From Parashewanella spongiae (GTDB lineage: Bacteria; Pseudomonadota; Gammaproteobacteria; Enterobacterales; Shewanellaceae): a stretch of 64,000 nt of DNA. Below the pieces are notes generated by a model, which did not search any database, was not told where the DNA came from, and saw only the letters and a list, made by a program, of their open reading frames with translations. Positions within the stretch are counted from its first letter, which is position 1, and every line of letters begins with the position of its first letter. This document shows positions 9,282 through 50,005 of this stretch, in pieces. The stretch covers positions 2,852,001 to 2,916,000 of the forward strand of contig NZ_CP037952.1 of assembly GCF_004358345.1 (NCBI RefSeq), given 5' to 3'. Both the position numbers and the translations under genes were made by a program.

Positions 9282-9299
9282 TCAGAGTTGGTACATAAA

Positions 9300-9494
9300 C
9301 CTAGAAACATTAGTTGACTGCGTTCTCAAGCGTAGAAAAAATGGCTGATAGCAAGCTATAACGCAGATAGCAGTCATTTTAGCAAGCTTGTGAGCGTAGA
9401 GCATTTCACTCATTGGATGAAAAACATGATAATAAAATCATCGTATTGCTCAAACAGTTACTCGTATACTCAGCGTTCAACTGATGTTTTTAGG
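9300..9494 (-). mobile_element. MITE-A, copy 1 (intron-free)
   Basis: A 195-bp non-coding element with imperfect terminal inverted repeats (CCTAGAAACATTAGTTGA at the left, the reverse complement of TCAACTGATGTTTTTAGG at the right). It is flanked by a perfect 5-bp target-site duplication ATAAA (9295-9299 and 9495-9499). It is the inverted, internally shorter relative of the elements at 32105-32337 and 47734-47956. It has no coding capacity, so it must be moved in trans. Unlike the other two copies it has no group II intron at its end, which makes it the in-window empty site. Confidence 0.88.
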
Positions 9495-9645
9495 ATAAAT
9501 TTCTTTGCTGCCCCTTTGGGCTTTTTCGTGCTTTTGATATTGAAGTACTTTGACAGTGAGGGCATTGAACATCTACAGAGTGACGCATGATATTCTCTAA
9601 AATAAATGAAACTAGAGTGCAACTATAATAGATCAATTCACTGCT

Positions 9646-12600
9646 TCAGCCCACTACCGACTCGCTCAATACTATCATTCCTGAGTTGAATTTATCCTCG
9701 ATAAACTCAAGTCCAAATTCATCTTTGAGAAAACTTATCATTCCATTTTTTAAAGTATTATAGCCATGGTATCCAGTTATGATCGATGTTATTTTGGGTT
9801 CATTGTTTTTTTTGTGGTAACAAAACAATAGTTTTGCGAAAGCTAATGGAACACCTCGAATATGTGTTCCATCCCCTGAATGTTCTTCGAAGATTTTATC
9901 CATATGCAAATCGATACAATGATTCATTAAGCCAACATTTTTTTTATATATTCCTTGTGTTACCCCTTTGTCAATCATGCTTGCGAAATTATCTTTTTCA
10001 AGTGGCGCAAGTTGAGCATGTATTTGTGAAAGAGTATTCATGTTACATTTATTCATTATTTTTTCTAAATACCATATTCCAGTGTCAAATCCCTTAGCCT
10101 TAATACATATTTTAATAAAGGCATTGTAAATGGCAACATCAGGCTTGATGCCCCACTGCTGCATTAAGCTGTCTGTAGCAGTATCGTCATCGCACAACAC
10201 CAATGATTTGGCTTCTGTAAAATGCTCCATTTCAGTGCAGGCCGTCAGTAAATTCAGGCAAGTGATTCGATTGGCTATTAATGGCAAATGAGGTGCCATC
10301 ACGGGCTTATCACCACACACCAGTTGCCAAGCACTATCAAACTGGCCCGTTTTAGCGCATACCGTGATAAAGGCATTGTAAATGGCAACGTTAGGCTCGA
10401 TGCCCCATTGTTGTATTAAGCTGGCTGTATCTGCATTGCCCAACACCAATGATTTGGCTTCAGCATAACGCTCCATTTCAGCGCAGGCCGTCAGCAAATT
10501 CATGCAAGTGATTTGATTAGCCTTTAATGGTAAATGAGGTGCCATCATGGGCTTATCACCACACACCAGTTGCCAAGCACTATCAAACTGGTCAGTTTTA
10601 GCGCATACCGTGATAAAAGCATTGTAAATGGCAACATCAGCCTTGATACCCCATTGTTGCATTAAGCTGGCTGTAGCTGTAACTGTATCACCCAACACTA
10701 ATGATTTGGCTTCTGCATAACGCCCCGCTTCAGCGCAGGCAGCCAGCAAATTCATACAGGTGATTTGATTGGTTTTTAATGGCAAATGAGGTGCCATCAT
10801 GGGCTTATCACCACACACCAGTTGCCAAGCACTATCAAACTGGTCAGTTTTAGCGCATACCGTGATAAAGGCGCTGTAAATGGCAACATTAGGCTTGATG
10901 TCCCATTGCTGCATTAAGCTAGTTATAGCTGTATTGCCATCGCCCAACACCAATAATTTGGCTTCTGCATAACGCCCCATTTCAGCGCAGGCAGCCAGCA
11001 AATTCAGGCAGGTTATTGAATCTGTCTTTAGTGGTAAATGAGGTGCCATCACGGGTTTATCACCACACACCAGTTGCCAAGCACTATCAAACTGGCCAGT
11101 TTTAGCGCATACCGTGATAAAGGTGCTGTAAATGGTAACATTCGGCTTGATGCCCCACTGCTGCATTAAGCTGGCTGTAGCTGTATCGCCCAAAACTAAT
11201 GATTTGGCTTCTGTATAACGCCCCGCTTCAGCGCAGGCCGTCAGCAAATTCGTGCAGGTGATTGAATCTGCCTTTAGTGGTAGATGAGGTGCCATCACAG
11301 GCTTATCACCACACACCAGTTGCCAAGCACTATCAAACTGATCAGTTTCAGTGCATACCGTGATAAAGGCATTGTAAATGGCAACATGGGGCTTGATGCC
11401 CCATTGTTGCATTAAACTGTTTGTAGCTGCATCGCCCAACACCAATGATTTGGCTTCTGCATAACGCCCCGCTTCAGCGCAGGCCGTCAGCAAATTCGTA
11501 CAGGTGATTGAATCTGCCTTTAGTGGTAAGTTAGGTGCCATCACGGGTTTATCACCACACACCAGTTGCCAAGCACTATCAAACTGGCCCGTTTTAGCGC
11601 ATACCTTGATAAAGACGCTGTAAATGGCAACGTTAGGCTTGATGCCCCACAGTTGCATTAAGCTAGCTGTATCACCATCGCCCAACACCAATGATTTCGC
11701 TTCTGTAAAACGCTCCATTTCTGCGCAGGCAGTCAGCAAATTCAGGCAGGTGATTTGATTGGCTTTAAATGGCAAATGAGGTGCCATCACAGGCTTATCA
11801 CCACAAACCAGTTGCCAAGCACTATCAAACTGGCCAGTTTTAGCGCATACCGTGATGAAGGTGCTGTAAATGGTAACATTCGGCTTGATGCCCCACTGCT
11901 GGACTAAGCTAGCTGTATCACCATCGCCCAACACCAATAATTTGGCTTCTGCATAACGCCCCGTTTCAGCGCAGGCCGTCAGCAAATTCGTGCAGGTGAT
12001 TGAATCTACCTTTAATGGTAGATGATGTGCCATCACGGGCTTATCACCACACACCAGTTGCCAAGCACTATCAAACTGGCCCGTTTTAGCGCATACCGTA
12101 ATAAAGGCATTGTAAATGGCAACATTAGGCTTGATGCCCCATTGCAGCATTAAGCTGGCTTCAGCTGCATTGCCTAGCACCAATTCTTTGGCATCTGAAA
12201 AATTTAGATTTAACTTAATTAATTTCAGTAATAGGATGCATGTTTTCGCTTCATAGGACGATTTAAATCGTGTTATGTCATTAAAAACGCCGTCGAAATT
12301 AGATGAACGGCTGTCAGAAAACTCAGCCGCTTTGTGTAACAATTTATGAATTAACCTTATGTCCCATGATGTTTCCATGACCTGTTTGTCGTTATTTAGG
12401 CTGTGAATGATTTCAATAAGCTGAGAAAGTTTAGTGCAACCACCAATTAATGCATTTAACTCAATACCCAGTTGATTTTTGCTTCTCTGTTTAAGTTTCC
12501 AAGAATGAATAAGCCCACTGGTTTGAGTAAAAAAAGAATTAGGGGAGGAAGATGGTTGCTGTATTTGCTTGGGATACTGAATGCTCGATTTTGGAGTAAT

Positions 12601-12897
12601 GGATCGGGGCTCAGTTGCAAAGCGTCGGCAAGCATTACTTGGCTTCTTACAATAATGAGCATCTTGTGTACAAGAGTTAAAGCGAGTCGACGATGATTTA
12701 TTGTTGAAAAAATCATACAGCTTTTGTCTATTGGTTTTGCTTAACCTTTGATAACACTGTTGTAAGTTTTCATCACCATCAAACCTTGAAACCTCAAAGT
12801 TCAGATAGGATATGGCTTCGCTTGGGTATTCTTGGAGACTTTTGAGCATGAATCTATATATTGATTGTTGCTCAGCAGGTGTGCGCACTGTCGCCAT
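9646..12897 (-). CDS. Pentatricopeptide-repeat protein with Smr-like C-terminal domain
   Basis: 1083 residues from the ATG at 12897 (GAG 7 bp upstream; an in-frame TTG at 12909 is the alternative). Residues 1-250 are a helical, serine-rich N-terminus. Residues 253-914 are eight near-identical units of 82-84 residues, each two PPR-like helical hairpins, one with IYNAFITVCAKTGQFDSAWQ and one with NLLTACAEAGRYAEAKSLV, plus a degenerate ninth half-unit. PPR arrays bind single-stranded RNA one base per repeat. The last ~90 residues carry DLH at 996 and SIITGYHGYNTLKNGMISFL near 1040, then NSGMIVL, which fits the LDLH and TGxG motifs of Smr endonuclease domains. No signal peptide or membrane span. 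No operon partner. Likely an RNA-binding, possibly RNA-cleaving protein, of the host cell or an exported effector. Confidence 0.75.
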   Translation of the reverse strand: MATVRTPAEQQSIYRFMLKSLQEYPSEAISYLNFEVSRFDGDENLQQCYQRLSKTNRQKLYDFFNNKSSSTRFNSCTQDAHYCKKPSNACRRFATEPRSITPKSSIQYPKQIQQPSSSPNSFFTQTSGLIHSWKLKQRSKNQLGIELNALIGGCTKLSQLIEIIHSLNNDKQVMETSWDIRLIHKLLHKAAEFSDSRSSNFDGVFNDITRFKSSYEAKTCILLLKLIKLNLNFSDAKELVLGNAAEASLMLQWGIKPNVAIYNAFITVCAKTGQFDSAWQLVCGDKPVMAHHLPLKVDSITCTNLLTACAETGRYAEAKLLVLGDGDTASLVQQWGIKPNVTIYSTFITVCAKTGQFDSAWQLVCGDKPVMAPHLPFKANQITCLNLLTACAEMERFTEAKSLVLGDGDTASLMQLWGIKPNVAIYSVFIKVCAKTGQFDSAWQLVCGDKPVMAPNLPLKADSITCTNLLTACAEAGRYAEAKSLVLGDAATNSLMQQWGIKPHVAIYNAFITVCTETDQFDSAWQLVCGDKPVMAPHLPLKADSITCTNLLTACAEAGRYTEAKSLVLGDTATASLMQQWGIKPNVTIYSTFITVCAKTGQFDSAWQLVCGDKPVMAPHLPLKTDSITCLNLLAACAEMGRYAEAKLLVLGDGNTAITSLMQQWDIKPNVAIYSAFITVCAKTDQFDSAWQLVCGDKPMMAPHLPLKTNQITCMNLLAACAEAGRYAEAKSLVLGDTVTATASLMQQWGIKADVAIYNAFITVCAKTDQFDSAWQLVCGDKPMMAPHLPLKANQITCMNLLTACAEMERYAEAKSLVLGNADTASLIQQWGIEPNVAIYNAFITVCAKTGQFDSAWQLVCGDKPVMAPHLPLIANRITCLNLLTACTEMEHFTEAKSLVLCDDDTATDSLMQQWGIKPDVAIYNAFIKICIKAKGFDTGIWYLEKIMNKCNMNTLSQIHAQLAPLEKDNFASMIDKGVTQGIYKKNVGLMNHCIDLHMDKIFEEHSGDGTHIRGVPLAFAKLLFCYHKKNNEPKITSIITGYHGYNTLKNGMISFLKDEFGLEFIEDKFNSGMIVLSESVVG
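10156..12141 (-). repeat. Eight tandem ~248-bp coding repeats (PPR array)
   Basis: Eight direct repeats of 246-252 bp inside the PPR gene, starting at each WGIKPNV-type codon block. Long stretches are identical in DNA, for example the segment encoding QFDSAWQLVCGDKP. Near-identity implies recent unequal crossing-over or conversion. Units 5, 6 and 8 carry two extra codons in the loop before the next unit. Confidence 0.92.
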
Positions 12898-13171
12898 CAC
12901 ATTACTCAATAAGTGAGTGAATTAACAAGCTAAGAAATAACGCACTGAAATGATAAATACAAAAATATTCAGCTTTAAGGCATTCTATAAATGTATAACA
13001 GAAAATTATCTACTGAACAGAGGAGCCGTTTCATAACTCATAGTTGCCCTTCAGACTCAAAAATAATGAAATTGAACGTGTATTGATTTTATCCCTCCTT
13101 TGCCAACTTGGTCGGCTGGCGCACGTCCATTGGTGAGTCTGTTCTGAACATTAACTAACTCGGCTTTGCAC

Positions 13172-13610
13172 GTGCGACGTGATGTCGTATGAAGTGCTGT
13201 TCACCGCTTAGAGTGAACCGTCTGTATCACCAGATGCCCCTAAGGTTCTGAATAAAGCAAGCGAGCCTAACAACGTAACAAAGTCTTTCTTTTAGACGGG
13301 AAAATAATCGTGAGAGGACGTTCCTCCTGATAACCACATAAATCGGGTGAGTGCTAGGGAGTCAGTATGATGAAGTAAGTGAATCCACACAGTGCGACGT
13401 GAAGTCGTATGAAGCGTTGTTCACCGCTTAGAGTGAACCGTCTGTATCACCAAATGCCCCTAAGGTTCTGAATAAAGCAGCGAGCCTAACAACGTAACAA
13501 AGTCTTTCTTTTAGACGGGAAAATAATCGTGAGAGGACGTTCCTCCTGATAACCACATAAATCGGGTGAGTGCTAGGGAGTCAGTATGATGAAGTAAGTG
13601 AATCCACACA
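13172..13610 (+). repeat. Tandem duplication of the intron 5' domain
   Basis: Copy 1 (13172-13391, 220 bp) and copy 2 (13392-13610, 219 bp) differ by a few substitutions and one single-base indel. Each runs from GTGCGACGTG to AATCCACACA. The junction falls exactly at the intron 5' terminus. Confidence 0.93.
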
Positions 13611-13964
13611 GATGCGTAATTTCACAAACAGCGGAAGTGGTTTATACGCTGTAGCCAAAAGGCAACGAGAGCAGGAAAGAAATTTACGTGTGTTCTTTCG
13701 TGATCAACAAGCTCTCCGCATTATAGTGGGCATCTAACCTGACATCACGTGTCATACGGAACACGGTAAGCCTGTATCGCTCCCTTTGGGAAAGCTGACT
13801 GCAAAGCCAGCCGATAGCAATGCAGGTAAAGGAGGCTGGAGAAAGCAAATGCTGCATTGTAATGATGCAGATACAGATTTATATCTGACACGAAAGTGAG
13901 CCCACTTCCAGCTGGTATCCCGTTGCAAGAAAAGTTGAAGAACTTTATTAATGGAGAAACGCAA

Positions 13965-14036: not shown

Positions 14037-14182
14037 AGCTTCAAGTGTGTATTGCAAAGGTAACTCTTTGTAGTTGCCGGGTAACGTTGTACGCCTCAGT
14101 GGAGGCTTGAGCCGTATGCAGTGAAAGTTGCACGACGGTTCTGAGGAGAGCGGCATCTGGCAACAGGTGTCGCTTATCCGAC

Positions 14183-24767: not shown

Positions 24768-26555
24768 TTAAATAAAGTCATATTCTTTCATATCCACAAC
24801 AGTACTTGTTTTAGCTTTTTGGGCTGCTTTAGCTTTTTCTGACTTTTTAAGTTCCTTTAACTGAATGATTTCAAATTCATCATTTTTCTTGTTATCTTGA
24901 GCAGCAGAACGTGTATCAGGCTTATTTACTGTGACTTTTGTTGACTGAGTTCTTGCTTTTAACAATTCAAAAGCTAGGTCACTATAATTAAAAGTTTTAT
25001 CAGCTTTATGTCGGATTAAAATAACCGCAGCTTCATCAAATGTCGCGTTCAAATTATCGGTAGTACGATTCAATTCTCGTTGCATTTTATATATTGCTTT
25101 TCTAGCATCACTTCGGTGTTTAATGAAGATCCCGAAAACGGTCATTGTACTTAGCACTGCAAAAACGCCACCAATTGTTCCACCAACAATTGCCCCTAAA
25201 GTGATATCATCACCTTCTTCATCACTAGAAGAATTGGTGGGTCTAAGAGATTCTTCCAATGCTTCAATAGCATCCACAATTGCAAAATCATCGCCTGCTC
25301 TAATTTTAACTACTGGTGACAAACTGGGGACTACCCCTTCAAATAAACAATCATCATTTAAATGATTTCGTATATCACCCCAAAGGTAAATCTTTCCTTT
25401 ATGAAGGATTTCTTGTGTTGCAGGAATATAAAGCCCTTTACTACCAAATTTAGGGTATAAAGAAGCCATGGTTTCACCAAGTGTAGCTGCATTTACTACA
25501 TCACCCATATGGGGGATTTTTATATTGTCACTGTCGACAAAAAAATCAATTAAAGTATCATTAACTTCAGACAAAGTATCGACACAGGTAATACTTGGCG
25601 CATCTGCAGTTTGATTTTGCTCAACGATACCCCTAAACACATCTTCCAGAGAATCTCGGTCTATTGAAACAGCATTACCACGAGCCACTGCATCTGGAGC
25701 GAAATCGCCATTAATTTCTACAAATGACGTAATATTTTTCCATTTAATATAACTTCCTTCGAAATAAACATATTTTTCTGGACCAATACAAATAAAATTT
25801 TCAGTATTATTATCTAAAACATCAAAATCAAACTGATCAAATAATCCAGCAAGGTCAACAACTTCACCGTAAAGATGTCCTTGTAAAGGAAAAGCGTTAT
25901 CTACCATCTTATCTAATCCGCATTCGCCGTTTGTTGTAACAAAAATGAAATCATCAGGATTAGTTGGTTCACAAAATTGAGTTTCATTCATTTCAGTATC
26001 GTTCATTTGTCGAACATATCGGCCAACGCTTCTTTGCGAGATAGATTTAGGTGATAATTGTTTATCTCCCATAAAGTTTGAAAACTTTTGGCCTATAACT
26101 TGTCCGCCTGCATTAAACAAAGCAGCACCTGATATTGAAAATAATATGTCACTAATTGTTTTTAGTACGACGTTTGTTTTTTTAGGCGGCGATAATTTGT
26201 CAGACACTTTTTTACCTGCATAGCCACCAGCTATACCTAAAATTGCTTGTGGAATTGATTTAGAAAATGAGTATGCTGCGGCAGTTCCTGTGAAAAACTC
26301 AGCCATTCTTCCACAAAATTTGGCATTTTTTTCTGTCATAAAGAAAAGAGAGCCTGCAGTTGTACACAAACCAACAATGTGTGTTCCTGCTCCGAGAGAT
26401 GCCCCAGCATAAGCACCTACCGCAATGCCAGCAGGCCCACCGGGGATGCCTGCTATACCTCCAACAGCTATACCTGTGCCAACTTTATGTGCCGCTTTTG
26501 TAGTTGAGTTTTCGATTGTTCTTAAAAAACTTCCTGTTACTGAATTAATTGCCAT
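24768..26555 (-). CDS. Large hypothetical membrane protein, paralogue of the 27304 gene
   Basis: 595 residues, function not recognised. The N-terminus (about residues 20-130) is glycine- and alanine-rich and hydrophobic, with GGIAGIPGGPAGIAVGAYAG, suggesting glycine-zipper helices. Residues ~185-440 are a soluble acidic region with at least two diverged units ending in an aromatic motif such as KGKIYLWGDI. One membrane span lies at about 450-480 (IVGGTIGGVFAVLSTMTVFG), followed by basic DARKAIYKMQRE and HKADKTFNYSD, then a charged tail. Positive charges after the span predict the tail inside and the repeats outside the cytoplasm. ATG at 26555 with AGGAA upstream. The larger neighbour shares every one of these parts. 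Confidence 0.75.
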   Translation of the reverse strand: MAINSVTGSFLRTIENSTTKAAHKVGTGIAVGGIAGIPGGPAGIAVGAYAGASLGAGTHIVGLCTTAGSLFFMTEKNAKFCGRMAEFFTGTAAAYSFSKSIPQAILGIAGGYAGKKVSDKLSPPKKTNVVLKTISDILFSISGAALFNAGGQVIGQKFSNFMGDKQLSPKSISQRSVGRYVRQMNDTEMNETQFCEPTNPDDFIFVTTNGECGLDKMVDNAFPLQGHLYGEVVDLAGLFDQFDFDVLDNNTENFICIGPEKYVYFEGSYIKWKNITSFVEINGDFAPDAVARGNAVSIDRDSLEDVFRGIVEQNQTADAPSITCVDTLSEVNDTLIDFFVDSDNIKIPHMGDVVNAATLGETMASLYPKFGSKGLYIPATQEILHKGKIYLWGDIRNHLNDDCLFEGVVPSLSPVVKIRAGDDFAIVDAIEALEESLRPTNSSSDEEGDDITLGAIVGGTIGGVFAVLSTMTVFGIFIKHRSDARKAIYKMQRELNRTTDNLNATFDEAAVILIRHKADKTFNYSDLAFELLKARTQSTKVTVNKPDTRSAAQDNKKNDEFEIIQLKELKKSEKAKAAQKAKTSTVVDMKEYDFI

Positions 26556-27303: not shown

Positions 27304-28500
27304 TTATCCCAGTTTACTCACTGCACTTTTGTCAAATTCTTTAACGTCTTTATCGCCTTCGAGCCTTACCTCTATTTTGTCACCCTTGTTGACCTTAACA
27401 AAGGTAGCTGCTGTTACTGTGTTCCAAAATGTGCCCTTTTTAATCACAACATTTACCTTTTCACCTTTTTGAAAGGTAACCTGTGGTTCAGGTGATTTTA
27501 TTGCTGCTGATAGTATTGCACTTGGTTTGTGTGTCGCTTTTGTGACGGTTTCAGGTTGTTTTATTACCTCCTTAGTGACGCCTTTTGCTGCTTCTTTTTT
27601 TACTGCTGGTTTAGGAATTTCTAGTTTAGAGGCTTCTACCTTAGGGGATACCAATTTACTCACTGAACTTTTTTCAAACTCTTTATCTTCTTTATCACCT
27701 TTAAGCCTTACCACTACTATATCACCCTTAACCTTAACAAAGGTTGCAGACGTTACTGTATTTCCAAACATATTTTTTTTAGTCACCACATTAACTGTTT
27801 CACCTTTTCTAAAGGTAATCGCTGGCTCATGTTTATTTCCTGTTGTTGAAGGTGCAGCACTCACTTTAGGGATCGTTTTTTCGACGCTTTCTGGCTGTTT
27901 CGTTATCGGCATCTTGGAGACATCTTTTTCTACTTCAGTTTCAACTTCTTTTTTTACTGATGGTTTAGGGGCTTCGGCCTTAGGAACGGCTTGTTTATTC
28001 ACTAAACTTTTTTCAAATTCTTTATCTTCTTTATCGCCTTTAAGCCTTACGACTATTTTGTCACCATTGACCTTAACAACGGTTGCAGACGTTACTGTAT
28101 CCCCAAACATACTTTTTTTAGTCACCACATTAACTGTGTCACCTTTTCTAAAGGTAATCGCTGGCTCAAGTTTTTTTGCTGTTGTTGAAGATGTTGCACT
28201 CGCTTTCGGTGTCGCTTTTGCGCCGCTTTCTAGCTGTTTAGTTATCGGATTCTTGGGAACGTCACTTGCTGCATCTTTTTTCGCTGGGAGTCTAGATGCT
28301 TCAGCCTTAGGATCGGCCTGTTTTCTCACTATACTTTTGTCAAATTCTTTATCAAGGTTATCCCCTTTAAGCCTTACCACGACTTTATTGCCCTTATTCT
28401 TAACCACGGTGGCAGACGTTAATGTATCTCCAAGTATGTTTGTTTTAGTCACCACTGTGACTGCTTCACCTTTTCTAAAGGTAATCGCCGGCTCAAGCTT
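27304..28500 (-). repeat. Four tandem SH3-like coding repeats
   Basis: Four blocks of about 55 codons (near 28318-28490, 28010-28175, 27655-27820 and 27304-27480) separated by proline/lysine-rich linkers. Each encodes a TFRKGE-type start, a VNVVTKK strand, a TVTSATVVKV strand, a VVRLKGDK strand and an EFDKS end. A fifth, divergent copy is near 28668-28850. The five-strand pattern suggests a Tudor/KOW-type SH3 barrel; this is inference. Confidence 0.8.
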
Positions 28501-31500
28501 TTTTTCTTTATTAGGAGGTGTTGTACTCGCTTTAGGTGTCGATTTTTGGGCGCTTTCTGGTGGTTTTGGCATCACTGGCGGCTTGGTTGAAACCATCTCT
28601 AAATCAACCCATTTTTCTTTATCTACTCCACTTTTAACAGAACGTGATTTGACTGCTACAGATGCTTTACGAACAGCAGTTAAATCAAACTCTTTTACTT
28701 TTCCTGATGATGTGCAAATAAATGCTTTTTTATTTGCGGTATCAATATGGTCAATTGTCCCTCTAGCCACAACAGAAGCACCAGTAATTTTCGATCCTGT
28801 TAAACATAAAACCTCGACACTCTCACCGACTGCAAATAAAGCTTTTACATTTGACGTACCCCCTGCTTTTCTAAGTACTTTTACTTCTTCAGTAATCGCT
28901 TTAAAATCCATTTTTTTATCAGTTTTATGCTGCAGTAATATGTACTTAGCTTCCTGCTCACTCAAGCGTAAAGCCCCATTAGTCTCAGCGCTGACTTCTT
29001 TTTTCAGTTTATAAATGGCTTTTTTTGCTTGCCTTCTGGTCACTATACAAGTACCAAAAATGGTACACCCAATAAGAGAAGTCGCACCAACCGCTACTCC
29101 AGCAGGCAATCCATATTTTTCAACGACATCTAATACTAGGCTTTGCCTGTATCGATTGATTGCACTAATAAGAGTTGACTCAGTGACTCCTTTGTAAGCA
29201 TTAAGCTCACCATCTACTGTTTCGAGTGATTGTTCACAGGTATTTTGCTCTGGCAAAAAGGGAGCAATATCTCTCCACAAATAAACTCTGTCCTCATGCA
29301 TGATTTCTTGATTGCTATTAATCGCTAAACCAGTAGTGCTCCATTGAGGATATGATTGAACAAATATTTGGCTAATGTTATTAACTTCTATCACTTCCGT
29401 TGAATTTAAAAAATCTACCTGAAAACTACATTCACGTTCCGCAAAACTAGCTCTTGGTGCCTGCTCAATGCTTTTAAAGAGTGTATCTCTGCTGACATTT
29501 CGCCATGCATTTCTATCCCTCACACAGGCGCTATCTTCATAATTAAAGCCCCTAGACACGTCTTGCCATAAAACATGTTTTTCACCGTTAAACACAATAT
29601 CATTGGGGGCTAACTCTACGGCGCTGCCATTTTGGAATGCTGTAGATAAATCGTCGGCATGAACAACATTTCCATAAATAATGGGTGTTTTTCGATTATC
29701 AACAAAGCAAATTCGGTCAAGTGCTTTAGGTGCATTAATTATCGCTTGACGCATTTGCTCAACACCGACTTTTTTTATTCCCCTGCTTTCAAGATGGCAC
29801 TCTGACAAAAGTGGTTTGACATCACGCCAGTAACTGATGTGATTACCGCCTGCCGAGACCAAGGCGTCATCAGGAATATTTAGCCCTCGTGAATCGGTAA
29901 TGTTACCAATATCTTCTACGGATATAGGGTGGTATTGAGCATCATTTAGCACAACAGGTGAGTCACAAGTCCTAAAGGCTCGCCTTAAAAAACGACGAGT
30001 TAAGGTTCTGCTGTTTATGCTTCCGGGATAACGTGAAGAGTCACTGCATATCCCTCGAGAGGCCGCACTGCTTTGTAACCGCCTTTCGAAAGTTACCCAA
30101 GGGATACTCACGAAACCATCTGTCACCATAGGAGGGTTAGCACTGCTTTCAACCAATGCCTGCCCAAGTACATCGATGGTAATATCATCAAGATGTAAAA
30201 CGCCATTGCTAGCATCCATTGAAGCTGTTGTGCAGTTAGAAACAATATCGTTATAAGCTTGGTTATAGTCAGTGATAGTTAAAAATTCAGTATTGGGTTG
30301 CCCCTGATTATTACCCTCGCATCGAGCATGTGGGTTTTTCTCCCTCACTTTTTGATAAAACATGGACCAAGGTACAAGAATATTATTATTAGGAGTCCTT
30401 ACCATCACATTCGAATTTGGGCTTAATGCTTGGTTGAATTCACTTGGTATGTCTGTGGTGTTAATTACGCTACCAAAAGGAAGGATAAGCGCTGAATTAC
30501 AATCGTAGGCTTTTGCGTCCGGAGGCACGCATTGATTACTCACATTAACGGGTGTTGCGTGGAATTGCTTAAATGAAGTGCCTTGCCTAAATTTAACTCC
30601 ATGGCCTCCACCGTTACAATTGACAAATACTGGGGTACAACCTTCCATATAAGACGGTATGCTATCAGTGGTACTACTAGCGCCGCGAATTTGAAGAATT
30701 TCAAATATTGGCACACAACCAGTTGACTTAATTTTAGCAGGCGCAAGCCCTACAATCCCTTGATTATTTACAGTATTTCTAACAGAGCATTCTTCGACCC
30801 CGCCCAAAGGTTTAATTGCCCCACGATTATCATCTCTACCTAATGGTACAAACCACTTTCGTCTATTTACTCCCCTCCCCATATCTACACAATTTTCAGC
30901 ATCTCTGCTCACTCGAGGATGCTGCCGTGGTGGCTCATTCATTTTAGGGTTTTCATTCACCGATAGAATATTGCGCCCTCCCCCCATCCTTGATGGATTA
31001 TGACTATTATCTGGTGGACCATCTCTAATATCTACTTGTTTAGGATTGGTTAACAAACCTTCTAATGTGTCATCGTTTATTGGCGCTTTATGGTTTGCTT
31101 TTAGTGGCGAATCATCGTGCTTTTCAATCAAAAGAGTGTTTTCGGGTTGTTTAATGTCGCTTTCATCGTCACTTACATAGCCTTCATCGTTTTCAACGGT
31201 TGGTGCTGATGCATAATCCAGTGCTGTGCCCGCTAATTTTGTACCGCCATAACCGGCTGTTGTACCAACAAAAAAATTCGTTATACATCGTAAGTAACTG
31301 TCTTTGGGTACATCTAACTTGTCTTGTACGCTATTTGACACGGCAACAGCGCCTTTACTCGCCAATATACCAGATGTACCTGTAATGGCACCGTGAACAA
31401 GGCCTTGTGGAGCGAGCGCCCCAGCAAATGTACCTTGAAGAGCTGTTTTTATACCGCTTGTTGTATATTTTCCTACTGTACTTTCTTTAACCTTATCAGG

Positions 31501-31731
31501 TAGGCAATCCACTGTCTTTTTTGCTATAAAATCGATAACTTCATCAGCTTTAGGCTTGATTGCAACTTGATAGGCTAATCCCACCGCCGCTCCAGCCGGA
31601 CCTCCTGTAGCTAAACCAACACCAGCCGTTAAAGCCGTTTGAACAATAGTTTTTCCAGAAGGCATAGCATTATAAACCTGCCTTGCTAAGGTAGGGCTCT
31701 GCTTAGGTGCTATCGATGTTTCTGCACTCAT
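27304..31731 (-). CDS. Giant repeat-containing membrane protein of unknown function
   Basis: 1475 residues, function not recognised. Parts in order: glycine-rich hydrophobic N-terminus (about 25-165, including ATGGPAGAAVGLAYQ and FFVGTTAGYGG); a low-complexity polar region (~180-330); a central region (~340-860) of four to five diverged units of 80-100 residues, each with an aromatic motif such as ISYWRDV, HVLWQDV or VYLWRDI followed by a cysteine; one span at about 870-900 (GLPAGVAVGATSLIGC); basic QAKKAIYKLKKE and HKTDKKMDF; then one divergent and four close SH3-like repeats (about 960-1475). Paired cysteines and basic residues after the span suggest the centre faces out and the SH3-like tail faces in. 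It may be a surface or exported protein. Confidence 0.75.
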   Translation of the reverse strand: MSAETSIAPKQSPTLARQVYNAMPSGKTIVQTALTAGVGLATGGPAGAAVGLAYQVAIKPKADEVIDFIAKKTVDCLPDKVKESTVGKYTTSGIKTALQGTFAGALAPQGLVHGAITGTSGILASKGAVAVSNSVQDKLDVPKDSYLRCITNFFVGTTAGYGGTKLAGTALDYASAPTVENDEGYVSDDESDIKQPENTLLIEKHDDSPLKANHKAPINDDTLEGLLTNPKQVDIRDGPPDNSHNPSRMGGGRNILSVNENPKMNEPPRQHPRVSRDAENCVDMGRGVNRRKWFVPLGRDDNRGAIKPLGGVEECSVRNTVNNQGIVGLAPAKIKSTGCVPIFEILQIRGASSTTDSIPSYMEGCTPVFVNCNGGGHGVKFRQGTSFKQFHATPVNVSNQCVPPDAKAYDCNSALILPFGSVINTTDIPSEFNQALSPNSNVMVRTPNNNILVPWSMFYQKVREKNPHARCEGNNQGQPNTEFLTITDYNQAYNDIVSNCTTASMDASNGVLHLDDITIDVLGQALVESSANPPMVTDGFVSIPWVTFERRLQSSAASRGICSDSSRYPGSINSRTLTRRFLRRAFRTCDSPVVLNDAQYHPISVEDIGNITDSRGLNIPDDALVSAGGNHISYWRDVKPLLSECHLESRGIKKVGVEQMRQAIINAPKALDRICFVDNRKTPIIYGNVVHADDLSTAFQNGSAVELAPNDIVFNGEKHVLWQDVSRGFNYEDSACVRDRNAWRNVSRDTLFKSIEQAPRASFAERECSFQVDFLNSTEVIEVNNISQIFVQSYPQWSTTGLAINSNQEIMHEDRVYLWRDIAPFLPEQNTCEQSLETVDGELNAYKGVTESTLISAINRYRQSLVLDVVEKYGLPAGVAVGATSLIGCTIFGTCIVTRRQAKKAIYKLKKEVSAETNGALRLSEQEAKYILLQHKTDKKMDFKAITEEVKVLRKAGGTSNVKALFAVGESVEVLCLTGSKITGASVVARGTIDHIDTANKKAFICTSSGKVKEFDLTAVRKASVAVKSRSVKSGVDKEKWVDLEMVSTKPPVMPKPPESAQKSTPKASTTPPNKEKKLEPAITFRKGEAVTVVTKTNILGDTLTSATVVKNKGNKVVVRLKGDNLDKEFDKSIVRKQADPKAEASRLPAKKDAASDVPKNPITKQLESGAKATPKASATSSTTAKKLEPAITFRKGDTVNVVTKKSMFGDTVTSATVVKVNGDKIVVRLKGDKEDKEFEKSLVNKQAVPKAEAPKPSVKKEVETEVEKDVSKMPITKQPESVEKTIPKVSAAPSTTGNKHEPAITFRKGETVNVVTKKNMFGNTVTSATFVKVKGDIVVVRLKGDKEDKEFEKSSVSKLVSPKVEASKLEIPKPAVKKEAAKGVTKEVIKQPETVTKATHKPSAILSAAIKSPEPQVTFQKGEKVNVVIKKGTFWNTVTAATFVKVNKGDKIEVRLEGDKDVKEFDKSAVSKLG

Positions 31732-32104
31732 TATGACTCGCTTCTGGGTAAATGACCGTTAGAATACAGTGCATTAAATACGAGCAATCATTTAAGGTAA
31801 AGCCCAAACGAGCATATTTAATAATACGCAATACCGAATGCCGATCACCAGAAAGTAAGCCATTGAAAAAAAAGAAGTTAGCATTAAACAGCAAAGATTA
31901 CTGTTAGATTAAATTATATTTAACATAATAGGGAGTGTAGATCTTTGTGATTGTTTTAGAGGGGGTTAAATCAAAAAATAGCTGGGCAAGGAGCAAAAAT
32001 TCAACCCTGAAAATCTGCTCACCATAAACTAGTTTTGTTAGGGTCTGTTGATCTTTCAGCTTTCAGGATTAAATTTTGTGCTATTTGAGCATTTATCTGT
32101 TCAA

Positions 32105-32337
32105 CCTAAAAACATCAGTTGAACGCTGAGTATATGAGTAACTGTTTGAGCAATACGATGATTTTATTATTATGTTTTTCACCTAATGAGTGAAATGCTC
32201 TACGCTCACAAGCTTGCTAAAATGGCTGCTATCTGCGTTATAACTTTTGCAAGTAGAATAACTACTTGCTGCAAGCTACGCCTTAATATCAGCCATTTTT
32301 TCTACGCTTGAGAACGCAGTCAACTGATGTTTCTAGG
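32105..32337 (+). mobile_element. MITE-A, copy 2
   Basis: 233 bp from CCTAAAAACATCAGTTGA to TCAACTGATGTTTCTAGG. Its left flanking pentamer TTCAA (32100-32104) reappears not after the right terminus but after the group II intron at 34499-34503. The intron therefore sits exactly between the MITE terminus and its target-site duplication. The element is inserted in element F. Confidence 0.9.
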
Positions 32338-32946
32338 GAGCGCCACGAAGCGCTTTATTCTGTTGCGGGATTTGTCTCAACGTATACGCAGCCAAGCGAT
32401 TACATGGCCATAAACCAGAGACAGCAACGTTATTATTTATAATAAGTCCATCAGGTTGAAACGTACCTGACGGGATAATTACCAGTTCATCCCGAAATCT
32501 GACGGGCATGCATAATGGGTAACCGCTATGACATGAAGCCCTGTGACAAAGGCCTTGAATAAAGGTTGAGATGCAATGTAGGCCGCAGCATCAAGCGAAT
32601 TCAGTTAAGCGTCGTAAATCAAAAAATGAAGATGGGGAGTCTTTCCTAGTTGACGAACCCTGACACAAACAGAGAAGCAACTGGTAAATGCATCTGTTTG
32701 ATCTTCCGGCGTAATATGAAGTGGCATGTATTGAAGGAAATAAAGTGAACGTGGGAGAGCCTGAGTGTTGGAAGGTAGTGACTTGCACTATCCGAATATA
32801 AGGTAAACCGAAATTTCAGATAGGGCGCTCAGGCAGTCGGATGAGCCCATAGTACCGTTAACCGTGAAGACAACATAACTTCACATCAGGGAAGGGGCTC
32901 AGTGTTACACCCGTTTTTAACGTAACTTTTGAGGTGAAATTGCCAT

Positions 32947-34378
32947 ATGGCTAACACTCCAGTAAATATCAGAATATTACAGCGAAAACTTTACTTACGC
33001 TCAAAGCTTAACTCGGAGCTACGATTTTACAGCTTGTACGATAAACTCAGTCGCCTAGATATACTCGAAGAAGCCTATCGACGATGCAAAGCCAATAAAG
33101 GCGGAGCAGGAATTGATGGCATCACATTCAGTTATCTAGAGCAGCAAAAGAAAGTCGTTGCGCTGTTAAAAGAAATTCAAACTCAATTACAACAGAAAAA
33201 CTATCGACCTAGCCCAGTCAAACGAGTAGAAATACTCAAAGACAACGGCAAAACGCGGAAACTTGGGATCCCGATAATCAGTGACAGAATTGTGCAAATG
33301 GCGATGACAATAGTGATGCAACCCGTCTACGAACCTCATTTACATGAACACAGTTATGGCTACCGTCCATGTCGAAGCGCCCAGCAAGCGGTAAAAGTCA
33401 TTGAAATGAGCCTAACAAGGCTATCAGCACGTACTCGATGCTGACTTGAGCGCCTATTTCGATACCATCCCGCACGCTAAGTTGATGGCAAAAGTAGAAA
33501 GGCGAATAAGCGACAGCAGCTTTCTGAGTTTGCTGAAAAGCTTTATCAAAGCGCCCATCAGCATAGAGACGGTCAACGGGAAATGGCGAATAGAAGCAAG
33601 CCGATGTGGCACTCCGCAAGGCGGAGTTATCTCTCCACTACTGGCTAACATCTATCTCAACGATTTCTGTTTGAAAATACACGAAAAAACACCGTGTAAA
33701 ATCGTTACCTATGCAGATGATTTTGTTGTACTTCATAAGCAAACCTACACACAAGAGCAACTGGACTGGATAGCACAGCAATTAAGTGATGAAGGTCTGA
33801 AGCTAAATCAAAGTAAAACCCACTGTGTGGATATGGGAAAGCTGATGAATGAGTTTGATTTCCTCGGTTTTAACTTTCAACGGATCACAGGCCTCATCAA
33901 AGGCACCAGTTACATTAAGATACAGGCGTCTAAGGGATCTAGCGATTTAGAAAGTACCAATCTTTGTCATACCAGCGAAAGCTGGTATCCAGTGACTTTT
34001 TATAGGAAAAAGCAAAGGCACTAGACTCCAGCCTGCGCTGGAGTGACAAGAACTCATCGGTATACTTTCTTCCGCAACTTTCCTAAGAAGAGCCAAACAA
34101 AGCTGAAAAATAAACTCAGAGACATAGTGAAGCATCGAACCTCAAATACACTTGGCGTACAGATAAATAAAGTTAATCAAGTTCTGAGGGGATGGAAACA
34201 CTATTTTGGTGGGATAGGATATCCCAGAGGAGTATTTTTCAGAATAAATGGATTTGTAGTAAACCGATTCTATCGATGGCATCGTCGCTTAAGTCAACGT
34301 CGAAGCAAGTATCTATCACGAGGTGCTTACGAAAAATTACGCCAAGCTGGTCTTGAGTATTTACCCACGACAAGATGA
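32947..34378 (+). pseudogene. Group II intron reverse transcriptase/maturase, broken
   Basis: Compared with the intact copy at 48567-49847, a 2-bp deletion near 33417 shifts the frame after about 158 codons, and a 153-bp element inserted after 33934 adds stop codons. Palm motifs are still readable downstream, including QGGVISPLLANIYLN and YADDFVVL. The C-terminal maturase segment RGWKHYFGGIGYPRG is intact beyond the insertion. It cannot make a full protein, but the intact copy elsewhere could act on this RNA in trans. Confidence 0.93.
33935..34087 (-). mobile_element. Element D inserted in the RT gene
   Basis: A 153-bp insertion relative to the intact intron copy, counting one arm of the duplicated CTAAG (33930-33934 and 34083-34087). 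The interior holds REP-like palindromes such as CATACCAGCGAAAGCTGGTA and CTCCAGCCTGCGCTGGAG. A longer relative occupies 47170-47656, and partial relatives flank aroG. Confidence 0.88.
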
Positions 34379-34646
34379 TAAGCAAAGTGAAGGGGCTGAG
34401 AGAAGTGTAACAACAGAGCCGTGTGAGGGAAAACCTCATGCACGGAATCGAAGAGGGGCTGCTGGATAAGCGATAGCGAAGCCAGTAGCCTACTCTACTT
34501 CAAGGTGTGAGCAGTGATGCTTAGCCATCTAAGTGAGCTGGTCACAACACAGAACAGTGAATGCTCAAAAGCATCGAAAAAAGAGAGAGCGTAAATTGGT
34601 CGCTCTTTCTAAATAAAAGGTGCTGCGTTATCGTTTTCTTATTTGG

Positions 34647-34678
34647 AAACGAAGTAACGACAGTTTTGTATGTCGATA
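34647..34678 (+). repeat. 32-bp mini-repeat E
   Basis: Begins AAACGAAGTAACGACAG and ends TTTGTATGTCGATA; contains the hairpin CGACA/TGTCG. Other copies are at 21076-21107 and 45670-45701 (inside MITE-B), 57341-57372, and 47231-47240 plus 47538-47559 (split by MITE-C). This copy is near the right end of element F. Confidence 0.8.
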
Positions 34679-34768
34679 ATAACCAAACCTCACAAACTCT
34701 GTCTTGCATAAAATAACCAATTTATCTCTGCAAAAACAATCACGAAAGATCAACAGACCCTAGTATTT

Positions 34769-47656: not shown

Positions 47657-47733
47657 TAAAGTGAATGTACACGAATCAGACATCACTGTTACATATTTAT
47701 ACATAGAGTCACAATAGCTCGCGTTAGTTTTAA

Positions 47734-47956
47734 CCTAAAATCATCAGTTGAACGCTGAGTATATGAGTAACTGTTTGAGCAATACGATGAATGGCTTTCA
47801 CCCAATGAGTGAAGTGCTCTAAGCTCACAAGCTTGCTAAAATGACTGCTATCTGCGTTGTAACTTTTGCAAGTAGAATAACTACTTGCTGCAAGCTACGC
47901 CTTACTATCAGCCATTTTTTCTATGCTTGAGAACGCAGTCAACTGATGTTTCTAGG
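47734..47956 (+). mobile_element. MITE-A, copy 3
   Basis: 223 bp, CCTAAAATCATCAGTTGA to TCAACTGATGTTTCTAGG. Left flank TTTAA (47729-47733) is found again only after the intron, at 49968-49972. It differs from copy 2 by about ten substitutions and an internal indel. Confidence 0.9.
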
Positions 47957-49967
47957 GAGCGCCACGAAGCGCTTTATTCTGTTGCGGGATTTGTCTCAAC
48001 GTATACGCAGCCAAGCGATTACATGGCCATAAACCAGAGACAGCAACGTTATTATTTATAATAAGTCCATCAGGTTGAAACGTACCTGACGGGATAATTA
48101 CCAGTTCATCCCGAAATCTGACGGGCATGCATAATGGGTAACCGCTATGACATGAAGCCCTGTGACAAAGGCCTTGAATAAAGGTTGAGATGCAATGTAG
48201 GCCGCAGCATCAAGCGAATTCAGTTAAGCGTCGTAAATCAAAAAATGAAGATGGGGAGTCTTTCCTAGTTGACGAACCCTGACACAAACAGAGAAGCAAC
48301 TGGTAAATGCATCTGTTTGATCTTCCGGCGTAATATGAAGTGGCATGTATTGAAGGAAATAAAGTGAACGTGGGAGAGCCTGAGAGTTGGAAGGTAGTGA
48401 CTTGCACTATCCGAATATAAGGTAAACCGAAATTTCAGATAGGGCGCTCAGGCAGTCGGATGAGCCCATAGTACCGTTAACCGTGAAGACAACATAACTT
48501 TATATCAGGGAAGGGGCTCAGTGTTACACCCGTTTTTTAACGTAACTTTTGAGGTGAAATTGCCATATGGCTAACACTCCAGTAAATATCAGAATATTAC
48601 AGCGAAAACTTTACTTACGCTCAAAGCTTAACTCGGAGCTTCGATTTTACAGCTTGTACGATAAACTCAGTCGCCTAGATATACTCGAAGAAGCCTATCG
48701 ACGATGCAAAGCCAATAAAGGCGGAGCAGGAATTGATGGCATCACATTCAGTTATCTAGAGCAGCAAAAGAAAGTCGTTGCGCTGTTAAAAGAAATTCAA
48801 ACTCAATTACAACAGAAAAACTATCGACCTAGCTCAGTCAAACGAGTAGAAATACTCAAAGACAACGGCAAAACGCGGAAACTTGGGTTCCCGATAATCA
48901 GTGACAGAATTGTGCAAATGGCGATGACAATAGTGATGCAACCCGTCTACGAACCTCATTTACATGAACACAGTTATGGCTACCGACCATGTCGAAGCGC
49001 CCAGCAAGCGGTAAAAGTCATTGAAATGAGCCTAAAACAAGGCTACCAGCACGTACTCGATGCTGACTTGAGTGCCTATTTCGATACCATCCCGCACGCT
49101 AAGTTGATGGCAAAAGTAGAAAGGCGAATAAGCGACAGCAGCTTTCTGAATTTACTGAAAAGCTTTATCAAAGCGCCCATCAGCATAGAGACGGTCAACG
49201 GGAAATGGCGAATAGAAGCAAGCCGATGTGGCACTCCGCAAGGCGGAGTTATCTCTCCACTACTGGCTAACATCTATCTCAACGATTTCTGTTTGAAAAT
49301 ACACGAAAAAACACCGTGTAAAATCGTTACCTATGCAGATGATTTTGTTGTACTTCATAAGCAAACCTACACACAAGAGCAACTGGACTGGATAACACAG
49401 CAATTAAGTGATGAAGGTCTGAAGCTAAATCAAAGTAAAACCCACTGTGTGGATATGGGAAAGCTGATGAATGAGTTTGATTTCCTCGGTTTTAACTTTC
49501 AACGGATCACAGGCCTCATCAAAGGCACCAGTTACATCAAGATACAGGCGTCTAAGAAGAGCCAAACAAAGCTGAAAAATAAAATCAGAGACATAGTGAA
49601 ACACCGAACCTCAAATACACTTGGCGTACTGATAAATAAGGTTAATCAAGTTCTGAGGGGATGGAAACACTATTTTGGTGGGATAGGTTATCCCAGAGGT
49701 GTATTTTTCAGAATAAATGGATTTGTAGTAAACCGGTTCTATCGCTGGCATCGTCGCTTAAGTCAACGTCGAAGCAAGTATCTATCACGAGGTGCTTACG
49801 AAAAATTACGCCAAGCTGGTCTTGAGTATTTACCCACGACAAGATGATAAGCAAAGTGAAGGAGCTGAGAGAAGTGTAACAACAGAGCCGTGTGAGGGAA
49901 AACCTCATGCACGGAATCGAAGAGGGGCTGCTGGATAAGCGATAGCGAAGCCAGTAGCCTACTCTAC
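47957..49967 (+). mobile_element. Group II intron, copy 2 (apparently intact)
   Basis: 2011 bp from GAGCGCCACG, directly after the MITE-A terminus, to CCTACTCTAC, directly before the duplicated TTTAA. Domain V at 49885-49918. The ribozyme part before the RT gene is about 610 nt. It carries an uninterrupted RT/maturase gene, so it may still be mobile. The 5' end GAGCG deviates from the GUGYG consensus at position 2, yet the boundary is fixed by the MITE end. Its 3' end is 39 bp from the ilvY stop codon. Confidence 0.93.
48567..49847 (+). CDS. Group II intron-encoded reverse transcriptase/maturase
   Basis: 426 residues from ATG at 48567 with GAGGTG upstream. RT domain about residues 30-300: KANKGGAGIDGITF, EHSYGYRPCRSAQQAV, DLSAYFDTIPH, GTPQGGVISPLLANIYLN and the catalytic YADDFVVL (about 252-259). 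The maturase (X) domain follows with LRGWKHYFGGIGYPRG and a basic C-terminal tail. No HNH endonuclease domain, as in class C introns, which rely on exposed single strands or hairpins for integration. It makes cDNA from its own intron and assists splicing; it could also act on copy 1. Confidence 0.95.
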   Translation: MANTPVNIRILQRKLYLRSKLNSELRFYSLYDKLSRLDILEEAYRRCKANKGGAGIDGITFSYLEQQKKVVALLKEIQTQLQQKNYRPSSVKRVEILKDNGKTRKLGFPIISDRIVQMAMTIVMQPVYEPHLHEHSYGYRPCRSAQQAVKVIEMSLKQGYQHVLDADLSAYFDTIPHAKLMAKVERRISDSSFLNLLKSFIKAPISIETVNGKWRIEASRCGTPQGGVISPLLANIYLNDFCLKIHEKTPCKIVTYADDFVVLHKQTYTQEQLDWITQQLSDEGLKLNQSKTHCVDMGKLMNEFDFLGFNFQRITGLIKGTSYIKIQASKKSQTKLKNKIRDIVKHRTSNTLGVLINKVNQVLRGWKHYFGGIGYPRGVFFRINGFVVNRFYRWHRRLSQRRSKYLSRGAYEKLRQAGLEYLPTTR

Positions 49968-50005
49968 TTTAACTAAATTTGTAATTTAACCACTTTTGAA
50001 AATTT

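What the first reader, a model, noticed from the sequence alone, without database searches (positions are those of the whole stretch)
32105..34503. Group II intron lies exactly between a MITE terminus and its target-site duplication (first case)
MITE-A has TTCAA on its left (32100-32104). The matching TTCAA is not at its right terminus but at 34499-34503, after 2161 bp of group II intron. The intron therefore entered the exact MITE/flank junction. Together with the second case below this points to the transposon end as an intron target, a landing-site type I do not know to be described for class C introns, which are known to use terminators and attC hairpins.
Basis: partly seen in the sequence, partly recalled or inferred. 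Interest (0 to 1): 0.85.

Follow-up and report, generated by a model that had tools for sequence, protein, structure and literature searches.

The report
Retro-intron that homes to transposon tips
In this bacterium a self-copying intron has inserted dozens of times exactly at the outer edge of one small transposon, nearly always in one orientation relative to DNA replication, so one mobile element uses the tips of another as landing pads.

Summary
TTCAA–MITE-A–intron–TTCAA lies as described. The 5.47-Mb genome has 66 intron 5' ends; 59 abut a MITE-A end to the base (56 right, 3 left) and 5 more abut tips of related elements. Occupancy of exact right tips follows replication: 41 of 54 in lagging-template orientation against 6 of 93 in the other (p = 1e-18). 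Best explanation: repeated retrohoming of an endonuclease-less group II intron guided by the inverted repeat. Corrections: it is not class C (RF02003), and inverted repeats as intron targets are already reported (RmInt2/ISRm17, PMC5894124, passages). In the RmInt2 copies I checked the intron lies inside the repeat; here it lies at the outer edge and leaves the repeat whole. I call it a new variant of a known kind. Class assignment, EBS pairing and splicing remain unproven.

The parts
32100..32104 (.). left copy of the MITE-A target-site duplication (TTCAA)
   Evidence: sequence
32105..32337 (+). MITE-A, 233 bp, terminal inverted repeats CCTAAAAACATCAGTTGA / TCAACTGATGTTTCTAGG, no ORF of 100 aa or more
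   Evidence: 41 matches listed in the genome (40 candidates scored); 482 matches of the tip motif with up to 2 mismatches
32338..34498 (+). group II intron, first case; damaged reverse-transcriptase gene (about 149 bp inserted near 33935-34083, frameshift near 33420)
32449..32454 (+). candidate EBS2 (CATCAG), complementary to CTGATG at -14 to -9 of the MITE-A right tip
   Evidence: sequence complementarity only
32645..32649 (+). candidate EBS1 (CCTAG), complementary to CTAGG at -5 to -1 of the MITE-A right tip
   Evidence: sequence complementarity only; occupancy falls when -5 is T
34499..34503 (.). right copy of the target-site duplication (TTCAA), separated from MITE-A by the intron
   Evidence: sequence
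47729..47733 (.). left target-site duplication of the second case (TTTAA)
47734..47956 (+). MITE-A, second case
47957..49967 (+). group II intron, second case, intact
48567..49847 (+). intron-encoded reverse transcriptase/maturase, 426 aa, RVT_1 + GIIM, no endonuclease domain reported
49968..49972 (.). right target-site duplication of the second case (TTTAA)
9300..9494 (-). intron-free MITE-A (shorter internally) with TTTAT at 9295-9299 and 9495-9499: an empty site

Best explanation
A group II intron whose reverse transcriptase lacks an endonuclease domain has spread by repeated, independent retrohoming into pre-existing MITE-A copies. Its 5' exon is the outward-reading inverted repeat of the MITE (about the last 14-20 bases), recognised at least partly by base pairing (candidate EBS1 CCTAG with CTAGG, candidate EBS2 CATCAG with CTGATG). 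The 3' exon is whatever the MITE's target duplication supplies, usually beginning with T. Hence the intron lands exactly between the tip and the duplication and leaves the inverted repeat whole. [quoted passage not shown] Shown by sequence: the position, the copy number, independence from MITE ancestry, the strand bias, the right-over-left preference. Inferred: EBS pairing, reverse splicing at forks, priming. Not tested: splicing or mobility.
For: 59 of 66 intron 5' ends at MITE-A ends, all with TAGG directly before the intron; 5 more at ends of related elements with the same kind of tip. Exact right tips: occupied 41 lagging-template and 6 leading; empty 13 and 87 (100 of 101 places listed); Fisher p = 1.2e-18, same for four assumed terminus positions 2.69-2.852 Mb; leaving out 500 kb either side of the terminus, occupied 38:1, empty 13:85. 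GC skew changes sign between 2.69 and 2.85 Mb and at the record's ends. Left tips (T instead of C at -5): 2 occupied of 56 lagging-template exact left tips against 41 of 54 right, p = 2.8e-16 (100 of 110 empty left places listed). MITE and intron distances uncorrelated, r = -0.037, p = 0.62, 37 units; MITEs differ by 5.5% on average, introns by 0.84%. Same nesting site in MITE-B: 41 empty, 2 clean MITE-A only with duplicated TTCAA, 6 MITE-A + intron in both MITE-A orientations, the intron always at the right tip. MITE-A relatives in all 4 other genomes of the genus searched (72-87% identity); in those 4 the reverse transcriptase finds nothing above 40% identity. RVT_1 + GIIM only. +1 base T in 29 of 37 occupied against 6 of 13 empty lagging-template right tips, p = 0.04.
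Against: 13 lagging-template exact right tips are empty; 6 exact (7 in all) introns are in the leading orientation, 6 of the 7 within about 400 kb of the terminus and one at 0.55 Mb unexplained. 16 of 49 readable pairs have non-identical flanking 5-mers, though intron-free MITEs are similar. One intron lies 20 nt after a transposase-like gene at TACTAGG, and one 83-nt fragment (702813) has no tip at all. The EBS candidates are modest: an 8-base match at intron 310-317 scores higher than either, EBS1 spans only 5 bases, the predicted D1 fold did not show EBS1 in a loop when folded with 460 nt, and my attempt to check EBS1 in relatives by a recalled motif found nothing usable. One pair of units (833187, 4645344) has identical MITEs and nearly identical introns, so single unit copies or recombination are not excluded. 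No transcript, splicing or mobility data.
Confidence: 0.93

Rival explanations
1. MITE-A and intron move as one composite transposon, the intron's 3' end serving as a substitute end (in the manner recalled for one-ended mobilisation by ISEcp1).
For: Matching 5-bp duplications enclose the pair in 33 of 49 readable cases; one pair of units is near-identical in both parts.
Against: MITE and intron distances are uncorrelated over 37 units; identical introns (237484, 4677348) sit on MITEs 8.7% apart. 3 introns sit at left ends reading outward. A DNA transposon unit gives no reason for the 38:1 strand partition, nor for empty tips being mostly in the opposite orientation. The intron 3' end does not resemble the inverted repeat (by eye).
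Confidence: 0.02
2. The target is recognised as a hairpin (as class C introns do at terminators or attC): the two MITE repeats fold back and the intron enters at the foot of the stem.
For: MITE-A single strand folds into a long stem with the tips paired (-41.1 kcal/mol, z -6.4).
Against: Both tips lie at the same stem foot, yet right and left tips differ 41/54 against 2/56. Five occupied copies have no left tip found within 700 nt (804590, 3021022, 4000238, 4586713, 5348470), though HSPs show two of these keep most of the MITE. Ribozyme and RT are not class-C-like.
Confidence: 0.04
3. MITE-A inserts beside pre-existing introns, i.e. the MITE targets the intron's 5' edge.
For: Exact abutment.
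Against: The second copy of the duplication is on the far side of the intron, not between MITE and intron; intron-free MITE-A copies outnumber intron-bearing ones among exact right tips (101 empty places, 47 occupied); MITEs are more diverged than introns.
Confidence: 0.01

Closest known systems
RmInt2 of Sinorhizobium meliloti GR4 and its target ISRm17 (class D group II intron)
   Same: RT without endonuclease domain; uses inverted repeats of a transposable element; review states that use of both repeats ensures a target on the lagging-strand template (PMC5894124, passages).
   Different: In the 4 copies read on NC_019848.2 (identified as RmInt2 by copy number) the intron lies inside the conserved end, roughly 13-16 bp from the outer edge, with the IS body downstream; here it lies at the outer edge with the MITE body upstream and the repeat unbroken. 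RmInt2 uses both ends; here right tips dominate 56:3. RmInt2 has 7 copies in GR4 (PMC5894124); here 66. Ribozyme RF01999 against RF02003; RT 33% identical.
RmInt1 and ISRm2011-2 (class D)
   Same: Endonuclease-less; IS as homing site; preference for the lagging-strand template (PMC8914252, passages).
   Different: Target within the IS according to PMC5894124 (passages); RT 32% identical; other ribozyme family.
IS-homing introns of enterobacteria such as E.c.I4
   Same: Multicopy, very similar copies, transposable elements as homing sites (PMC3522654, passages).
   Different: Inserted inside IS3-like transposase genes according to that paper, not at tips; occupancy there is counted without regard to strand in the passages seen.
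Group II intron RT of Vibrio rumoiensis plasmid NZ_AP018688.1
   Same: Nearest protein found, 59.7% identity over 89% of the query.
   Different: Its record lacks the first 46 residues and no similarity to our intron's 5' part was found, so its target could not be read.
Class C introns (terminators, attC)
   Different: RT similarity and ribozyme family do not fit; see rival 2.

Membership tests
Mobile group II intron | RT/maturase plus intron RNA domains | tested here: met
   TIGR04416 357 bits over cut-off 300; RVT_1 + GIIM; Rfam RF02003 and RF00029, both only just over cut-off
Mobile group II intron | self-splicing and retrohoming activity | not testable with these tools
   no transcripts or assays; 42 of 53 full copies examined keep an ORF of 420 aa or more, introns differ by 0.84% on average
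RmInt2-type intron at IS inverted repeats | target lies in a transposon inverted repeat | tested here: met
   64 of 66 intron 5' ends follow a repeat-like tip within 3 mismatches
RmInt2-type intron at IS inverted repeats | endonuclease-less RT and lagging-template bias | tested here: met
RmInt2-type intron at IS inverted repeats | class D lineage (ribozyme RF01999 in RmInt1 and RmInt2) | tested here: not met
   ours RF02003, RmInt1/2 RF01999; RT 32-33% identical
RmInt2-type intron at IS inverted repeats | insertion inside the repeat, both ends used | tested here: not met
   exact outer edge, 56 right: 3 left against RmInt2 copies read
Class C group II intron | class C RT and ribozyme | tested here: not met
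   185 bits to GsI-IIC RT against 346 for a class-C-like relative that carries RF02001; ours RF02003
Class C group II intron | insertion after a hairpin (terminator, attC) | tested here: inconclusive
   MITE can fold but right and left tips differ strongly
MITE | short, inverted repeats, target duplication, no transposase, multicopy | tested here: met
MITE | autonomous partner with the same ends | tested here: inconclusive
   none found among element-sized pairs of ends in the 1.25 Mb sampled; IS4-type genes near some tips have other ends

The most novel reading that the evidence does not exclude
The intron is a specialist of transposon tips that lives on several related inverted-repeat families at once and, because it inserts at the outer edge, leaves the repeat intact, so the MITE may stay mobilisable and keep supplying new homing sites, while the transposon's own target preference (TT-rich duplication) supplies the 3' exon base. 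On the permissive strand the sites are close to saturation (38 of 51), which would mean that group II introns judged unsaturated in other genomes may be saturated once replication strand is counted.
Probability: 0.35. Interest if true: 0.7.

Novelty: new variant of a known kind. Interest (0 to 1): 0.6.

Why it matters
It gives a natural experiment of unusual size: about 150 near-identical target sites (147 exact right tips read) scattered over both replichores, in both orientations, with and without intron. Strand choice, end choice and single-base effects on group II intron homing can be read from one genome. It also bears on a stated question: PMC3522654 (passages) argued from incomplete occupancy that selection, not saturation, limits group II introns in bacteria. 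Here overall occupancy of exact right tips is 47 of 147, yet 41 of 54 on the lagging-strand template. Counting by strand could change such conclusions. If the MITE remains mobile after insertion, this is also a case of one mobile element using another as a renewable landing pad without breaking it.

Tried and rejected
Rejected: movement as one unit; MITE inserting beside introns; hairpin recognition as the main determinant (see rivals). I first suspected from memory that MITE-A belongs to the IS1380/ISEcp1 family (CCTAG ends, 5-bp duplication, one-ended mobilisation); the Pfam model that I recalled for it gave no match over its cut-off in the genome, its weak hits are IS4-family transposases (NCBIfam IS4_4) with other ends, so the family of MITE-A is not established.

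Led nowhere: D1 folding of the intron gave no clear EBS1 loop when 460 nt were folded; a scan of 31 relatives for a recalled EBS1-side motif found no usable frame for EBS-IBS covariation; the nearest plasmid relative has lost its 5' part. I did not survey where those relatives are inserted. Orthologous empty sites in sister species were not examined; I only showed that MITE-A relatives exist there and that close introns do not.

Limits of the counts: the genome search scored only 40 candidates; the intron census is by a 23-base 5' motif with up to 3 mismatches (all 66 were exact), so copies without a 5' end are missed. One search listed 100 of 482 places and was not used as a census. Searches listed 100 of 101 and 100 of 110 places. 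Detailed reading covers 1,254,641 of 5,468,749 bases (23%), chosen around introns plus three other stretches. Terminus and origin are inferred from GC skew of these stretches, not from dif or dnaA. The Mantel test used 37 of 66 units (right-end units with a 215-240-nt MITE and an intron of 2000-2015 nt). In the +1 base test 4 of 41 occupied tips had no readable 3' flank.

Literature: 7 searches answered, one was rejected for a short term. Passages were seen of PMC3522654, PMC8914252, PMC5894124 and PMC3552965; the RmInt2 research paper (Martinez-Rodriguez 2014) was not found in the library and not read. That the exact outer-edge position in a MITE is unreported rests only on these searches.

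Full report
What was claimed and what is there. The second case at 47729-49972 is equally exact with TTTAA. A third, intron-free MITE-A at 9300-9494 has its TTTAT duplication at both tips.

Genome census. The window lies in an unnamed 5,468,749-base single-contig genome. A 23-base intron 5' motif finds 66 places (35 forward, 31 reverse). I took stretches around all of them and read both junctions. 56 introns abut the right end of a MITE-A, 3 abut the left end reading outward, and all 59 have TAGG directly before the intron. Of the other 7, three (814506, 970528, 3505785) and two (4151033, 5191909) abut the ends of related elements with CCAACCGATTTRTCTAGG- or CCAACTGATKTTTCTAGG-type tips; one (3303311) lies 20 nt after a transposase-like gene at TACTAGG; one (702813) is a rearranged 83-nt fragment without a tip. 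So 64 of 66 follow a tip of this kind.

Duplications. 33 of 49 readable MITE+intron pairs have identical flanking 5-mers, against a mean of 7 and maximum of 16 when partners are shuffled; 16 differ by 1-3 bases and 10 could not be read. Intron-free MITE-A copies show 23 identical of 36 readings once 33 readings whose far end carries an intron are set aside. Mismatches are thus a general feature of MITE-A here, probably decay or recombination between copies.

Does the pair move as one? No. Over 37 units the MITE and intron distance matrices are uncorrelated (Mantel r = -0.037, one-sided p = 0.62); MITEs differ by 5.5% on average and introns by 0.84%; identical introns sit on MITEs 8.7% apart. 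One pair with identical MITEs and near-identical introns exists and may be a copy or recombinant. A repeated nesting site inside another MITE family (MITE-B) supplies in-genome controls: 41 copies are empty, 2 carry only MITE-A with duplicated TTCAA (1658163, 4116339), and 6 carry MITE-A plus intron. Four of the six have MITE-A in one orientation and two in the other, and the intron is always at the right tip of MITE-A, not at a fixed MITE-B flank. MITE-A relatives occur in all four other genomes of the genus searched, where no RT above 40% identity was found. MITE-A therefore came first.

Replication strand. GC skew changes sign between 2.69 and 2.85 Mb and around the record's start. Exact right tips: 47 occupied (41 in lagging-template orientation, 6 leading) and 100 listed of 101 empty (13 and 87), p = 1.2e-18, unchanged for four assumed termini. 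Beyond 500 kb from the terminus, 38 of 51 lagging-template tips are occupied against 1 of 86. Within 500 kb of the terminus, 8 of 10 tips are occupied without a strand preference, as expected if forks pass there both ways (inference). Both cases in this window are in that zone and in the leading orientation. Of all 66 introns, 59 are in lagging-template orientation.

Which end and which bases. Exact left tips, which have T instead of C at -5, are occupied in 2 of 56 lagging-template cases against 41 of 54 for right tips (p = 2.8e-16; 100 of 110 empty left places listed). In the sampled stretches the few tips altered at -1 or -2 are empty. +1 is T in 29 of 37 readable occupied and 6 of 13 empty lagging-template tips (p = 0.04). 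The intron's first domain contains CATCAG (112-117) and CCTAG (308-312), complementary to -14 to -9 and -5 to -1. These are candidates for EBS2 and EBS1. They fit the -5 effect (G-C becomes G-U), but other complementary stretches exist, one of them longer, and no structural or covariation support was obtained.

What the intron is. The RT has RVT_1 and GIIM domains and no endonuclease domain was reported. Its ribozyme matches RF02003 just over cut-off (49.4 against 49), the family carried by relatives in Rhizobium, E. coli and Buttiauxella plasmids and in genome G106. RmInt1 and RmInt2 (class D) carry RF01999 and their RTs are 32-33% identical to ours; a class-C-like relative carries RF02001. 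So neither class C nor class D; the class name was not established. Nearest RT found: Vibrio rumoiensis plasmid, 59.7%. 42 of 53 full copies keep an ORF of 420 aa or more.

Known relatives of the behaviour. [quoted passage not shown] I read four copies on plasmid NC_019848.2 that I take to be RmInt2 (four copies there, as the review says, beside five of RmInt1). Comparison with intron-free ends shows the intron inside the end sequence, after CTAGTGCCCRTCCATA, with the IS body downstream. Our intron reads the repeat outward, ends it at the outer edge and leaves it unbroken. That is a real difference, within a known kind of behaviour. Lagging-strand preference of such introns is also known (PMC8914252, passages).

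Verdict. Observation confirmed and strengthened; interpretation right about the target, wrong about the class and about the target type being undescribed. Mechanism: independent replication-linked retrohoming into transposon tips (0.93). Most novel reading not excluded: a tip specialist that leaves its host transposon mobile and is near saturation on the permissive strand (0.35).

Noticed in passing
32947-34378 and G000:C1:1126295-1128463: The first-case intron and one other copy carry the same ~149-bp insertion at the same place in the RT gene, yet differ by 19 bases and are each as close or closer to other copies: a site-preferring insertion or gene conversion rather than simple descent.
   Followed up: partly
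G000:C1:4535910-4537744 and 5345928-5348470: Two intron copies at different MITEs share an internal RT-gene deletion (about intron 1051-1211) and differ by only 7 bases elsewhere; defective copies may spread with RT supplied by others, or by recombination.
   Followed up: partly
13172-13611 and 14107-14182: A different group II intron (RF02012) with its 5' part duplicated in tandem and a D5 match about 500 bp further on; no RT gene between them.
   Followed up: no
about 32039-34763: MITE-A with its intron is nested inside another MITE (MITE-B, ends TAGGGTCTGTTGATCTTTC / GAAAGATCAACAGACCCTA); 41 intact copies of that site were met in the 23% of the genome sampled.
   Followed up: partly
G000:C1:4613179-4613912 and 4630853-4631110: Exact MITE-A right tips spaced 238 bp apart (233 + 5) in runs of four and two: tandem MITE-A arrays sharing single duplications, all intron-free, in leading orientation.
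   Followed up: no
whole genome G000: Exact MITE-A right tips are themselves unevenly oriented: 54 in lagging-template, 93 in leading orientation (p = 0.0016); cause unknown, e.g. loss of intron-bearing copies or alteration of tips.
   Followed up: no
9646-12909: 1087-aa ORF made of about 82-84-residue repeats (eight to nine copies at DNA level) that look like pentatricopeptide-type repeats by eye; a similar ORF lies near G000:C1:3044100.
   Followed up: no
24768-26555 and 27304-31731: Two large ORFs of unknown function (595 and 1475 aa), the larger with a 3-4-fold repeat of about 110 residues.
   Followed up: no
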